Assembly: GCF_002160255.1 (NCBI RefSeq)
Contig: NZ_NFKF01000004.1
Coordinates: 124,001 to 188,000, forward strand
Direction: 5' to 3'
DNA length: 64,000 nt
Source: Olsenella sp. An188
GTDB lineage: Bacteria; Actinomycetota; Coriobacteriia; Coriobacteriales; Atopobiaceae
Shown piece by piece: positions 12,771-45,210 of this stretch; position 1 is the stretch's first letter, and each line of letters begins with the position of its first letter. The notes beneath the pieces are model-generated. The model was not told the DNA's origin. It searched no databases and saw nothing but the letters and a program-made list of their open reading frames with translations. Position numbers and translations under genes: made by a program.

Positions 12771-14696
12771 ATGCTGGTAGTGATCAGGGGTGCGGGGGAC
12801 ATCGCCACGGGCGTGGCGCTGCGCCTGCACCGCGCGGGGATGCGGGTCGTGATGTGCGACCTGCCCACCCCCACCTCCATCCGGCGCACCGTGTGCTTCT
12901 CCGAGGCCATCCGCCTGGGGGAGACGCGGGTCGAGGGCGTGCGCGGGGTGCTCTGCGCGGATGCCGCAACCGCGCGTGCCGTCGCGCGGGCGGGCGACGT
13001 GGCGGTGCTCGCGGACCCGGACGCGTCCTGCGTGGCAGAGCTCGCCCCGGACGCGCTCGTGGACGCGATCCTCGCCAAGCGAAACCTCGGCACGCGCCGC
13101 GGCATGGCGCCCGTCGTGGTGGGCGTGGGGCCCGGCTTCACCGCGCCCGTGGACTGCGACGCTGCGGTCGAGACGATGCGCGGCCACTACCTGGGCCGCG
13201 TCTACTACCAGGGGTCGCCGCTGCCCAACACGGCAGTGCCCGGCCTCATCGGCGGCTACGCGGGCGAGCGCGTGATGCGTGCGCCGGCCGACGGCGTCTT
13301 CGAGCCCTGCGTGGAGATCGGCGCCACGGTGCGCGCCGGGGACGTCTGCGCGCGCGTGGCCGGCGAGCCCATGTGCGCGACGATCGACGGCGTGGTGCGC
13401 GGCCTGCTCCAGGCCGGCGTGCGCGTGACGGCGGGCATGAAGTCCGGCGACGTGGACCCGCGCTGCCACCCGGAGTACATCGAGACCTCCTCCGACAAGG
13501 CGCTCGCCGTGGGCGGCGGCGTCCTCGAGGCGATACTTGCCCTCTCGGGCGGTGCCGCGGGCGACCGGGGCGAGAAGAACGACGCCCCCGCGCTCGGCGA
13601 CACCTTCTCCGACCAGGGCTTCGTTTCCGCCCTGCGAGACGAGCTCGCCGCGGGGCGCCGCGTGGCGCTGGCCAGCCTGCTCGCCACACGCGGCTCGATG
13701 CCGCGCCACGAGGGCGCGCGGCTGGCCGTGCTGGAGGACGGCCGCGTGCTCGGCACCGTGGGCGGCGGCAACGTGGAGCGCGTGGCCGAGTCCCGCGCCC
13801 GGGCACTTCTCGCCGGCGAGAAGAACGTGCAGCTTCCGGACGCTTCCGCGGCCCAAACCGACCGAAACCCGCACGCACCCGGAACCGCGCAGCTTCCGGA
13901 CGCTTCCGCGGCCCAAACCGACCGAAACCCGCACGCACCCGCGCTCGAGTGGCTCACCCGCGACGCCAACGACATGGCCTGCGGCGGGGACGCGCTTCTC
14001 GCCGTGCGCGCGCTCACGCCCGACGACCTCCCGACCCTCGAGGCGCTTCTTGGCGCGCTGGGGTCCCGCGGAGCCGCCACGCTCGAGGAGCTGTGGGCGG
14101 ACCCGTCCGCGCCCGAGCTCCGCGTGGCGACCGACGCCCGCCTTGCGCCCCGCGCGAGCTGGGACGAGGCGTCCGCCACCTACCGCGAGCCGGTCCTGGC
14201 GAGCGCGACCTGCCACGTCTTTGGCGCGGGCCACGTGGGCTCGGCGCTCGTGCCGCTGGCGGCGTCCATCGGCTACGAGGTGGCCGTCTACGACGACCGC
14301 CCGGAGGCCGCAGATCCCGCGCGCCTCCCGTCGGCGACGTCGGTGAGCTGCGGCTCGTTTGCCGACCTCGCCGCCGAGGCCAGGATCGGCGCGCATGACG
14401 CCGTGGTGGTGCTCACCCATGGCCACGCCGCCGACGAGACCGTTCTTCTCGCCGTGCTCGCGCGCGAGGCTCAGCCCGCCTACGTGGGCTGCATCGGGAG
14501 CCGCCGCAAGGCCGCGCTCGCCCGCGCCCGACTCGAGGCGGCCGGGATCCCCGCCGAGCGCGTTGCGTCCGTGCACCTGCCCATCGGCGAGGACATCCTC
14601 GCCGTCACGCCACAGGAGATAGCCGTCTCGATCGCGGCCCAGCTCATACGCTGCCGCGCCGGGCGGAGGACGCAAGGGGAAGGGACTCGCTCATGA
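12771..14696 (+). CDS. yqeB: YqeB-XdhC fusion: selenium-dependent Mo cofactor maturation protein
   Basis: 641 residues. Residues 1-275 are YqeB (VIRGAGDIATGVALRLHRAG at the start, GVGPGFTAP near residue 121, ETMRGHYLGRVYYQG near 140). Residues 290-635 are XdhC-like, with an RGSMPRHEGARL segment near 307, GTVGGGNVE near 327, VFGAGHVGSAL near 485, VLTHGHAADE near 545 and GCIGSRRK near 570. YqeB and XdhC act in preparing the (seleno)molybdenum cofactor for hydroxylases; here they are one chain. A foreign palindromic repeat lies in frame at residues 346-390. The gene overlaps modA by 4 bases. An alternative is two separate functions joined only for stoichiometry. Confidence 0.87.
   Translation: MLVVIRGAGDIATGVALRLHRAGMRVVMCDLPTPTSIRRTVCFSEAIRLGETRVEGVRGVLCADAATARAVARAGDVAVLADPDASCVAELAPDALVDAILAKRNLGTRRGMAPVVVGVGPGFTAPVDCDAAVETMRGHYLGRVYYQGSPLPNTAVPGLIGGYAGERVMRAPADGVFEPCVEIGATVRAGDVCARVAGEPMCATIDGVVRGLLQAGVRVTAGMKSGDVDPRCHPEYIETSSDKALAVGGGVLEAILALSGGAAGDRGEKNDAPALGDTFSDQGFVSALRDELAAGRRVALASLLATRGSMPRHEGARLAVLEDGRVLGTVGGGNVERVAESRARALLAGEKNVQLPDASAAQTDRNPHAPGTAQLPDASAAQTDRNPHAPALEWLTRDANDMACGGDALLAVRALTPDDLPTLEALLGALGSRGAATLEELWADPSAPELRVATDARLAPRASWDEASATYREPVLASATCHVFGAGHVGSALVPLAASIGYEVAVYDDRPEAADPARLPSATSVSCGSFADLAAEARIGAHDAVVVLTHGHAADETVLLAVLAREAQPAYVGCIGSRRKAALARARLEAAGIPAERVASVHLPIGEDILAVTPQEIAVSIAAQLIRCRAGRRTQGEGTRS
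13806..13941. repeat. In-frame insertion of a palindromic repeat (family D) with an inverted GGCGAGAAG pair, inside yqeB-xdhC
   Basis: CTTCTCGCC (13806-13814) and GGCGAGAAG (13815-13823) abut as an inverted pair. They are followed by a 53-base sequence present twice with a 60-base period (13829-13881 and 13889-13941), each a hairpin of the GTGC-GCTTCCGG.../...CCGAAACCCGCAC kind. It encodes two copies of QLPDASAAQTDRNPHAP. Length and period keep the frame. Confidence 0.85.
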
Positions 14697-35237: not shown

Positions 35238-35420
35238 GGTGCAGGTTGCGGACGGTTTTACGTCTCAGACCGTCCACAACCTGCACGTCTTCCGGGAACG
35301 TGCAGGTTGCGGTCGCTTTGGCGAGAAGAACCGTCCACAACCTGCACGCATCCGAGGAACGTGCGGCTTCCGGTCGGTCCCGGGTCCCAGACCGTCCGCA
35401 ACCCGCACGTTCTTCTCGCC
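35238..35420. repeat. Three consecutive GTGCAGGTTGCGGACGG stem-loops plus GGCGAGAAG motifs (family D)
   Basis: Hairpins at about 35239-35286, 35300-35347 and 35361-35408, each GTGC-GGTTGCGG-CGG paired with ACCGTCC-CAACCTGCAC. The second loop contains GGCGAGAAGAACC (35320) and the cluster ends with GTTCTTCTCGCC (35409-35420). The same family is at 44979-45210 and, degenerate, inside yqeB-xdhC. Confidence 0.85.
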
Positions 35421-36964: not shown

Positions 36965-37248
36965 GACCCCATGCTAGGGGCCGCCCGCAAAATGCCTGTC
37001 GGATATAACCGGAAGTTGCCCGGACTCGAGTGAGGGCAACGTGGAGCGAGAAGGACGGCGACCCCCGCGCCCCGCGCCGTCCTTCTCGCCCCGTGCGCTT
37101 TATTGTGTTCCGGTTACGCGACCGCCCCGGCTCGCGCGCCCGTAGTACAATCGCCTGCACGTGCGACGCTGCGCTGTCTACGCCACGCCGCCGTCCCAAG
37201 TCCACCGCCGCCCGATCCGACACGGGGCGGCCGCGAAGAAAGGCACCT

Positions 37249-39018
37249 ATGGACTCCCACACCATGCACACGCACACCTGCGGCGAGCTGCGCCGCGAGA
37301 ACATCGGCCAGCAGGTCACGCTGACCGGCTGGGTCTGGCACCGCCGCGACCACGGCGGCCTGATCTTCGTGGACCTGCGCGACCGCGACGGCGTGACGCA
37401 GGTCTCCTTTGACCCGGAGCACTCCGGCGGCGAGGCCTTCCACGCGGCCGAGACCATCCGCTCCGAGTGGCCGATCAAGGTTACGGGCGTGGTGCGCGAG
37501 CGCCCCGAGGGCATGGAGAACCCCAAGCTCGCCACCGGCCAGATCGAGGTTCTTATCGATGCCATCGAGGTCCTCAACTCCTCCAAGACCCCGCCGTTCC
37601 AGATCGAGGACCACGTGGACACCGCCGAGGACGTCCGCCTGCGCTACCGCTACCTCGACCTGCGCCGCCCGCGCATGGCCGCTAACCTGAAGATGCGCTC
37701 CGACTTCACCTTCGCCCTGCGCGAGGCGCTGCACGGCCGCGACTTCATGGAGGTCGAGACGCCGGCCCTCTTCAAGTCCACGCCCGAGGGCGCGCGCGAC
37801 TTCCTCGTTCCCTCCCGCACGCAGCCCGGCCACTTCTACGCGCTGCCGCAGTCCCCGCAGCTCTTGAAGCAGCTGCTCATGGTGGGTGGCGTCGAGCGTT
37901 ACTACCAGGTCGCCAAGTGCTTCCGCGACGAGGACCTGCGCGCCGACCGCCAGCCCGAGTTCACGCAGGTGGACATCGAGATGAGCTTCGTGGACCAGGA
38001 CGACGTCATGGGCGAGCTCGAGGACGTGCTGGCCGACGCCTTCGCCAAGATGGGCGTCGAGATGCCCACGCCCCTTCGTCGCCTCGACTACTGGGACGCG
38101 ATGGACACCTACGGCTCCGACAAGCCCGACACGCGCCTGGGCATGGAGCTCCACGACGTGACGTCCATCTTCGCCGAGTCCAAGTTCAAGCTCTTCGCGA
38201 GCGCCGCGGCCACCGAGGGCCAGTACGTCAAGGCCATCAACGCCAAGGGTGCCGGCGCCTGGCCGCGCGCGCAGATCGACAAGCTCGCCGGCGTGGCCGC
38301 GGAGTTCGGCGCCAAGGGCCTCGCCTGGATCGCCTTCCGCGAGGACGGCTCGGTCAACAGCCCCATCGTCAAGTTCTTCTCGGACGAGGAGATGGCCGCG
38401 CTGCGCGAGGAGATGGGCGTCGAGCTGGGCGACCTCGTGATGTTTGCCGTGGCCGACCGCAAGGGCGCCGACGAGATCCTCGGCGGCATGCGCCTGCACA
38501 TGGCGGGCGCGCTCGGCGTGCCGCGCGAGGGCCACGACTTCCTCTGGGTCGTCAACTTCCCGCTCTTCCACTGGGACGACGAGGCCGGCCGCTACGAGGC
38601 CGAGCACCAGCCCTTCACCCTGCCCACCGAGGCCGACGTCGAGAAGATCCGCGCGAACCCGCTCGCCATCGGCTCGGCGACCTACGACTTCGTCATGGAC
38701 GGCTGCGAGGCGGGCGGCGGCGGCATGCGTATCCACAACGCCCAGATGCAGATGGACATGCTCGAGCTCATGGGCTTCACGCAGGAGCGAGCCCGCGAGC
38801 AGTTCGGCTTCCTCATGGACGCCCTCGAGTACGGCGCGCCCCCCATGGGCGGCTTTGCGCTCGGCCTCGACCGCGTGTGCATGCTGCTGGCAGGCGAGGA
38901 GTCCATCCGCGACGTCATGGCCTTCCCCAAGACGTCGTCCGGCAGCGACCTCATGTCCGACGCGCCGGGCGAGGTCTCGACCAAGCAGCTCAAGGAGGTC
39001 GGCCTGCGCCTGCTGTAG
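37249..39018 (+). CDS. aspS: Aspartyl-tRNA synthetase
   Basis: 589 residues, bacterial type with OB-fold anticodon domain (TLTGWVWHRRDHGGLIFVDLRDRDG near residues 24-48), class II motif 2 (CFRDEDLRADRQPEFTQ near residue 225) and motif 3 (GFALGLDRVCMLLAG near residue 540), and the GAD insertion domain in the middle. It charges tRNA-Asp (possibly also tRNA-Asn if no AsnRS exists). The start at 37249 follows GAAGAAAGGCACC. A TACAAT -10-like hexamer at 37145 may be its promoter. A clear terminator follows. Confidence 0.97.
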   Translation: MDSHTMHTHTCGELRRENIGQQVTLTGWVWHRRDHGGLIFVDLRDRDGVTQVSFDPEHSGGEAFHAAETIRSEWPIKVTGVVRERPEGMENPKLATGQIEVLIDAIEVLNSSKTPPFQIEDHVDTAEDVRLRYRYLDLRRPRMAANLKMRSDFTFALREALHGRDFMEVETPALFKSTPEGARDFLVPSRTQPGHFYALPQSPQLLKQLLMVGGVERYYQVAKCFRDEDLRADRQPEFTQVDIEMSFVDQDDVMGELEDVLADAFAKMGVEMPTPLRRLDYWDAMDTYGSDKPDTRLGMELHDVTSIFAESKFKLFASAAATEGQYVKAINAKGAGAWPRAQIDKLAGVAAEFGAKGLAWIAFREDGSVNSPIVKFFSDEEMAALREEMGVELGDLVMFAVADRKGADEILGGMRLHMAGALGVPREGHDFLWVVNFPLFHWDDEAGRYEAEHQPFTLPTEADVEKIRANPLAIGSATYDFVMDGCEAGGGGMRIHNAQMQMDMLELMGFTQERAREQFGFLMDALEYGAPPMGGFALGLDRVCMLLAGEESIRDVMAFPKTSSGSDLMSDAPGEVSTKQLKEVGLRLL

Positions 39019-44966: not shown

Positions 44967-45210
44967 GGCGAGAAGAACGTGCGACTTGTGGACTTTTTTC
45001 TCGGCCAGACCGTCCGTAACCTGCACGTGTCTGAGGAACGTGCGAGTTATGGACGGTTTGGACCCTCAGACCGTCCGCAACCTGCATGGATTGGGAGAAC
45101 ATGCAGGTTGTGGTCGAATTGACCCGCTAGACCGTCCATAACCTGCACGTACCGGGCCAACGTGCTGCCTGCGGACGTTCTTCTCGCCAAAACCGTCCGC
45201 AACGTGCGCG
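44967..45210. repeat. Four consecutive family D stem-loops with flanking GGCGAGAAG motifs
   Basis: Four GTGC(A/G)-(A/G)(G/C)TT(A/G)-GGACGG / ACCGTCC-(T/C)AACCTGCAC hairpins in a row, opened by GGCGAGAAGAACGTGC (44967) and with GTTCTTCTCGCC (45177-45188) in the last loop. It separates two convergent genes. Confidence 0.85.

What the first reader, a model, noticed from the sequence alone, without database searches (positions are those of the whole stretch)
13806..13941. A family D palindromic repeat has entered the yqeB-xdhC gene in frame and duplicated
The 53-base hairpin sequence occurs twice with a 60-base period inside coding DNA, next to an inverted motif pair. It is clearly related to the GTGC-GGTTGCGG-CGG hairpins at 35239-35408 (three copies) and 44979-45207 (four copies). 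It adds about 45 residues between conserved XdhC segments while keeping the frame, showing that the repeat is or was mobile.
Basis: partly seen in the sequence, partly recalled or inferred. Interest (0 to 1): 0.7.

Follow-up and report, generated by a model that had tools for sequence, protein, structure and literature searches.

The report
Palindromic DNA array spliced into gene
A family of evenly spaced palindromic DNA repeats, found only in one genus related to Olsenella, has landed inside a working enzyme-maturation gene of this bacterium and doubled there at a spacing changed from 61 to 60 bases, so that the gene still reads through; this shows how a repeat family can seed new protein segments.

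Summary
Window 13827-13874 and 13887-13934 are two 48-bp palindromic units (47/48 identical, exactly 60 bp apart) inside an intact 641-codon yqeB-xdhC fusion. They belong to the same family as 35239-35408 and 44979-45209. The segment (net 38 codons) is absent from all 26 same-genus orthologues that cover the site, so it is a lineage-specific in-frame insertion with tandem duplication.

No RAYT transposase was found; how it disperses is unknown. Kind: REP/BIME-like array with Rickettsia-type in-frame insertion; new variant.

The parts
12771..14696 (+). yqeB-xdhC fusion gene (641 aa) that carries the insert
   Evidence: ORF; TIGR03309 and PF02625/PF13478; matches in 30 of 31 genus genomes
13569..13580 (+). 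GGCGAGAAGAAC motif, in frame (GEKN), in the YqeB-XdhC linker; other species carry arrays at this linker
13806..13826 (+). inverted motif pair CTTCTCGCC|GGCGAGAAGAAC directly abutting the first unit
   Evidence: sequence; the motif abuts 13 of 46 intergenic arrays on each side against 0.5% background
13827..13874 (+). array unit 1 (16-bp arm, 16-bp loop, 16-bp arm)
   Evidence: hit by model R1
13875..13886 (+). 12-bp spacer (13 bp in intergenic arrays)
13887..13934 (+). array unit 2, 47/48 identical to unit 1
35239..35420 (.). intergenic array, 3 units, 61-bp pitch, ending in GTTCTTCTCGCC, between convergent genes; an orthologous array exists in G010 (L093)
44967..45209 (.). intergenic array, 4 units, 61-bp pitch, starting with GGCGAGAAGAAC; last loop also holds the motif

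Best explanation
SHOWN: A genus-restricted family of palindromic DNA arrays (48-bp dyads at a 61-bp pitch, mostly downstream of genes, often abutting the motif GGCGAGAAGAAC) has contributed a lineage-specific in-frame insertion to yqeB-xdhC, now two units at a 60-bp pitch that keeps the reading frame. INFERRED: one dyad reached this site, probably beside a GGCGAGAAGAAC/GEKN motif, lost one base of the 61-bp repeat (or arrived that way), and was then copied by tandem duplication. The protein tolerates it as a flexible loop between the XdhC_CoxI domain and the following segment. INFERRED: intergenic arrays are kept as rows of inverted 16-bp binding half-sites for a DNA-binding protein, with length under selection; they expand and contract in 61-bp steps. 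The in-gene copy is a by-product of that family, not a protein adaptation.
For: Absent in 26/26 orthologues at this site. Units score best against this genome's own intergenic units. Pitch 61 bp at 73/73 sampled intergenic junctions. Whole-genome scans: 61-bp pairs 42 in G000, 37 in G008, 13 in G014, 2 in G013; 60-bp pairs one in each, all in yqeB-xdhC coding DNA (Fisher p 2.8e-7). No covariation between arms: 81.1% paired against 81.9% shuffled, score 0.146 against 0.149. Only 1 of about 44 arrays with callable neighbours lies between divergent genes. Copy number differs at orthologous arrays (5 units in L087, 2 in L015 and L012). AlphaFold: residues 350-385 have pLDDT<50 and no secondary structure, between a helix at 333-348 and a strand at 391-395.
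Against: 60-bp pitch is not exclusive to coding DNA in the genus: G028 has 4 and G018 has 1 non-coding 60-bp pairs. In-gene arrays recur in the same gene, so chance seeding of a neutral loop may not be the whole story. No binding protein has been identified. The structure model is of low overall quality (mean pLDDT 60.9, 7 sequences; the YqeB domain is also poor), so low confidence at the insert is weak evidence. No strain-level empty site was available.
Confidence: 0.7

Rival explanations
1. A REP/BIME- or MITE-type non-autonomous transposon, moved by an unidentified transposase, inserted here; GGCGAGAAGAAC...GTTCTTCTCGCC are its terminal inverted repeats.
For: Dispersed family; 24 of 46 arrays abut the motif core at one end or the other in the same outward orientation; patchy among species.
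Against: Only 2 of 46 arrays have the motif at both ends; no Y1_Tnp/RAYT in the genome; several arrays sit at orthologous sites in other species; no match in phages, plasmids or viral contigs.
Confidence: 0.35
2. The units act as RNA hairpins (terminators or mRNA stabilisers) and were carried into the gene by recombination.
For: Units are palindromic and mostly lie downstream of genes.
Against: The arms do not covary; loops and spacers keep exact length although they would be free to vary in an RNA hairpin; no consistent T-tract follows the arrays (flanks).
Confidence: 0.15
3. The in-gene array is selected at protein level as a useful linker in XdhC.
For: The same gene carries in-frame arrays at another linker in several species, at least four state changes on the gene tree by parsimony.
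Against: Linker length and sequence vary widely between species; insert sequence mostly follows the lineage's own DNA repeat type; predicted unstructured.
Confidence: 0.12
4. Assembly error or chance repetition.
For: Draft assembly in 16 contigs.
Against: The ORF stays open through the insert, the two units are not identical, related arrays occur through the genus, and the frame-adjusted pitch recurs in other assemblies.
Confidence: 0.02

Closest known systems
Rickettsia palindromic elements (RPE)
   Same: Palindromic repeat family with copies inserted in frame in protein genes (PMC10969869; PMC3733652).
   Different: RPEs are described at about 150 bp with many unrelated target genes; here 48-bp dyads in arrays with a fixed 61-bp pitch, and in-gene pairs were found only in one gene, always at multiples of 3 bp.
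REP / BIME elements (GTAG and CGTC families)
   Same: Short palindromes, clustered in alternating orientation, mostly downstream of genes or between convergent genes, sometimes intragenic (PMC3733652).
   Different: No RAYT gene in the genome; longer arms with an exact 16-16-16-13 layout; found only in one genus among those searched.
MITEs
   Same: Non-coding, dispersed, inverted ends in part of the copies.
   Different: No target-site duplication seen, inverted ends on both sides in only 2 of 46 arrays, tandem arrays.
DNA uptake sequences (DUS/USS)
   Same: For the companion motif only: a 9-12-mer with the 9-base core at about 0.7 per kb, both strands, coding and intergenic, genus-specific, with codon choice bent towards it.
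   Different: Known cases are Neisseriaceae and Pasteurellaceae (PMC1939737 abstract); uptake is untested here and the host is an actinobacterium.

Membership tests
Rickettsia-type in-frame palindromic elements | Palindromic repeat of an intergenic family inserted in frame in an intact gene, absent from orthologues | tested here: met
Rickettsia-type in-frame palindromic elements | Insertions in many unrelated genes | tested here: inconclusive
   Pair scans in G000, G008, G013 and G014 found only yqeB-xdhC; single-unit insertions were not surveyed
REP/BIME (RAYT-associated) | Y1_Tnp (RAYT) gene in the genome | tested here: not met
   with 5 of 14 control genomes positive
REP/BIME (RAYT-associated) | Clusters of alternating palindromes, extragenic, avoiding divergent promoters | tested here: met
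REP/BIME (RAYT-associated) | GTAG or CGTC tag at the foot of the stem | tested here: not met
   unit alignment shows no fixed unpaired GTAG/CGTC foot; CGTCC lies inside the arm
MITE | Terminal inverted repeats on both ends | tested here: not met
   2 of 46 arrays
MITE | Target-site duplication | tested here: inconclusive
   no duplication apparent at 13800-13950; no closely related empty strain available
RNA hairpin element | Compensatory changes in the stem | tested here: not met
Known Rfam family | Match at gathering score | tested here: not met
   only aspS RNA elsewhere in the window
DNA uptake sequence (companion motif) | Extreme over-representation, strand-balanced, restricted to a clade | tested here: met
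DNA uptake sequence (companion motif) | Favours uptake of DNA by competent cells | not testable with these tools
   ComEC family present in 40 of 41 genomes of the order, so not diagnostic

The most novel reading that the evidence does not exclude
The arrays and the GGCGAGAAGAAC motif are two parts of one genome-wide DNA-recognition system of this genus (for instance a DNA-uptake or nucleoid-organising code) that is strong enough to bend codon choice, put peptides such as GEKN and whole dyads into proteins, and hold a 61-bp pitch except where the reading frame forbids it.
Probability: 0.25. Interest if true: 0.85.

Novelty: new variant of a known kind. Interest (0 to 1): 0.6.

Why it matters
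It gives a clean natural experiment on how a non-coding repeat family becomes protein: the same DNA array is held at 61 bp outside genes and at 60 bp inside one. It also points to an undescribed genus-wide DNA motif system in gut Actinobacteria, with a 12-mer present hundreds of times, and predicts a protein that reads the arrays.

Tried and rejected
RAYT transposase as mover: none found. RNA hairpin: no covariation. Phage, plasmid or viral source: no matches. Chi/KOPS-like strand bias of the 12-mer: not seen in the single-contig genome G007 (45/39, interspersed). Perfect 12-mer inverted pairs as a general terminator type: only 5 in the genome. ComEC as a marker of a competence-linked motif: present throughout the order, so uninformative. 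The genome-contig scan returned only 8 relatives; the genome search gave the orthologue set.

Full report
WHAT IS THERE. The stretch 13806-13941 lies in the 641-codon ORF 12771-14696, a YqeB-XdhC fusion (TIGR03309, PF02625, PF13478) directly upstream of an ORF that reads like a molybdate-binding protein (own reading of the translation). It contains two 48-bp units, 13827-13874 and 13887-13934, with one mismatch between them and a 12-bp spacer, hence a 60-bp period. The first unit is preceded by CTTCTCGCC|GGCGAGAAGAAC. A search of the genome with this 136-bp stretch gave 44 matches; among 61 genomes the family was found only in the same genus (26 genomes, all same genus). Public records of the nearest relatives are named Olsenella or uncultured Atopobiaceae.

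IT IS AN INSERTION. Of the 30 other genus members, 26 have yqeB-xdhC sequence covering both sides of the site, and none has the segment; the net gain is 38 residues (seven-row alignment). The gene tree puts this sequence on its own long branch, so no close sister with an empty site was available. Scored against the unit profiles of four lineages, both in-gene units fit this genome's own intergenic units best, though the margin over G010 is only about 3 bits.

THE FAMILY. From 40 stretches taken from five genomes and the window, 120 units were collected that all have a 16-16-16 layout (one weak outlier). All 73 junctions between neighbouring intergenic units have a 13-bp spacer, that is a 61-bp pitch. 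Counts of units per genome are patchy, from none (G001, G004, G011, G025, G026) to about 50 or more (G000, G008, G010, G028; the search scored at most 100 hits per genome and counts both strands). Weak model hits in three genomes of other genera (2-4 each, E 6e-5 to 3e-3) were not followed up. Arrays lie mostly downstream of genes; only one of about 44 with callable neighbours is between divergent genes (approximate gene calls of my own). Several lie at orthologous places in different species with different copy numbers and species-specific arm sequences (35239-35408 against L093; L068 against L080; L060 against L087, L015 and L012). So those arrays are old residents that turn over in 61-bp steps.

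DNA SITES RATHER THAN RNA HAIRPINS. In 96 distinct units the two arms pair no better than when 3' letters are shuffled among units (81.1% against 81.9%; covariation score 0.146 against 0.149). Both arms simply fit one degenerate consensus, about GTGCRGSTTSCGGWCG, independently. Together with the fixed length of loops and spacers, this suggests rows of inverted protein-binding half-sites with a mean centre distance of 30.5 bp, about three helical turns. That last step is inference.

THE READING-FRAME SIGNATURE. A 61-bp repeat cannot be duplicated in frame. A pattern scan of the 31 genus genomes found 61-bp pairs: 42 in G000, 37 in G008, 16 in G010, 13 in G014, 2 in G013. It found 60-bp pairs: one each in G000, G008, G013 and G014, all inside yqeB-xdhC. 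For these four genomes the split is 4 of 4 in the gene against 0 of 94 others (Fisher p 2.8e-7); that the 94 are non-coding was checked only for the sampled loci, not for every pair, and G013 and G014 are sisters, so the four are not fully independent. The rule is not absolute in the genus: G028 has four and G018 one non-coding 60-bp pairs. In the other species the in-gene arrays sit at a different place, the linker between YqeB and XdhC. Parsimony on the gene tree gives four changes of state for the linker array, but the linker units of G010, G013, G014 and G028 are alike, so an ancestral array with losses is also possible.

THE COMPANION MOTIF. GTTCTTCTCGCC occurs 358 times in this genome, 84 to 506 times in 29 of the 30 other genus members, 11 times in G026, and 0 to 7 times in genomes of other genera. 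Its core CTTCTCGCC occurs 1,462 times here (0.68 per kb) against 46 for the reversed control. In called genes of the window, Leu-Leu-Ala is written CTT-CTC-GCC in 11 of 31 cases against 0.7 expected, and the peptide EKN is about eleven times more frequent than expected. The motif core abuts 13 of 46 arrays on each side (0.5% background) and appears in some loops and spacers. This resembles a DNA uptake sequence, but nothing here tests uptake.

PROTEIN CONSEQUENCE. AlphaFold2 on a shallow alignment leaves residues 350-385 unstructured between an ordered helix and strand of the XdhC part; overall quality is low. Solved XdhC relatives (2we7, 3on5) align mainly over the Rossmann domain. A tolerated loop is the simplest reading.

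VERDICT. The kind is known (REP/BIME arrays; in-frame palindromic insertions as in Rickettsia, PMC3733652 and PMC10969869). The fixed 61-bp architecture, its frame-adjusted form and the link to a genus-wide 12-mer appear new; the literature searches made here found no description, within the limits of an open-access library.

Noticed in passing
whole genome and genus; in the window e.g. 2045, 13569, 14442, 20340, 35409, 39027, 43403, 54890: Genus-specific over-represented motif GGCGAGAAGAAC / core GGCGAGAAG (66 core copies in 64 kb), strand-balanced, in frame as GEKN or VLLA inside genes; resembles a DNA uptake sequence in an actinobacterium.
   Followed up: partly
33110/33214, 43562/43665, 43734/43838, 53335/53439, 54342/54446: A second palindromic repeat, CAATTCCGGAATTG, occurs in pairs 103-104 bp apart (10 matches with up to 2 mismatches, 0.03 expected), suggesting an element of about 118 bp with palindromic ends.
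   Followed up: no
L054 / L042 (G029) and L033 (G018), linker of yqeB-xdhC: The linker between YqeB and XdhC carries expanded peptide repeats built from the motif (GEKDAGGEIA repeated in G029; GEKNAS repeated in G018), so the motif itself also multiplies in frame.
   Followed up: partly
37163-37244 (+): aspS RNA motif (RF02930) above gathering score, inside my longest called ORF 37030-39018, whose true start is probably downstream.
   Followed up: no
G026: The only genus member examined with few copies of the 12-mer (11), no arrays, and yqeB and xdhC apparently as separate genes.
   Followed up: no
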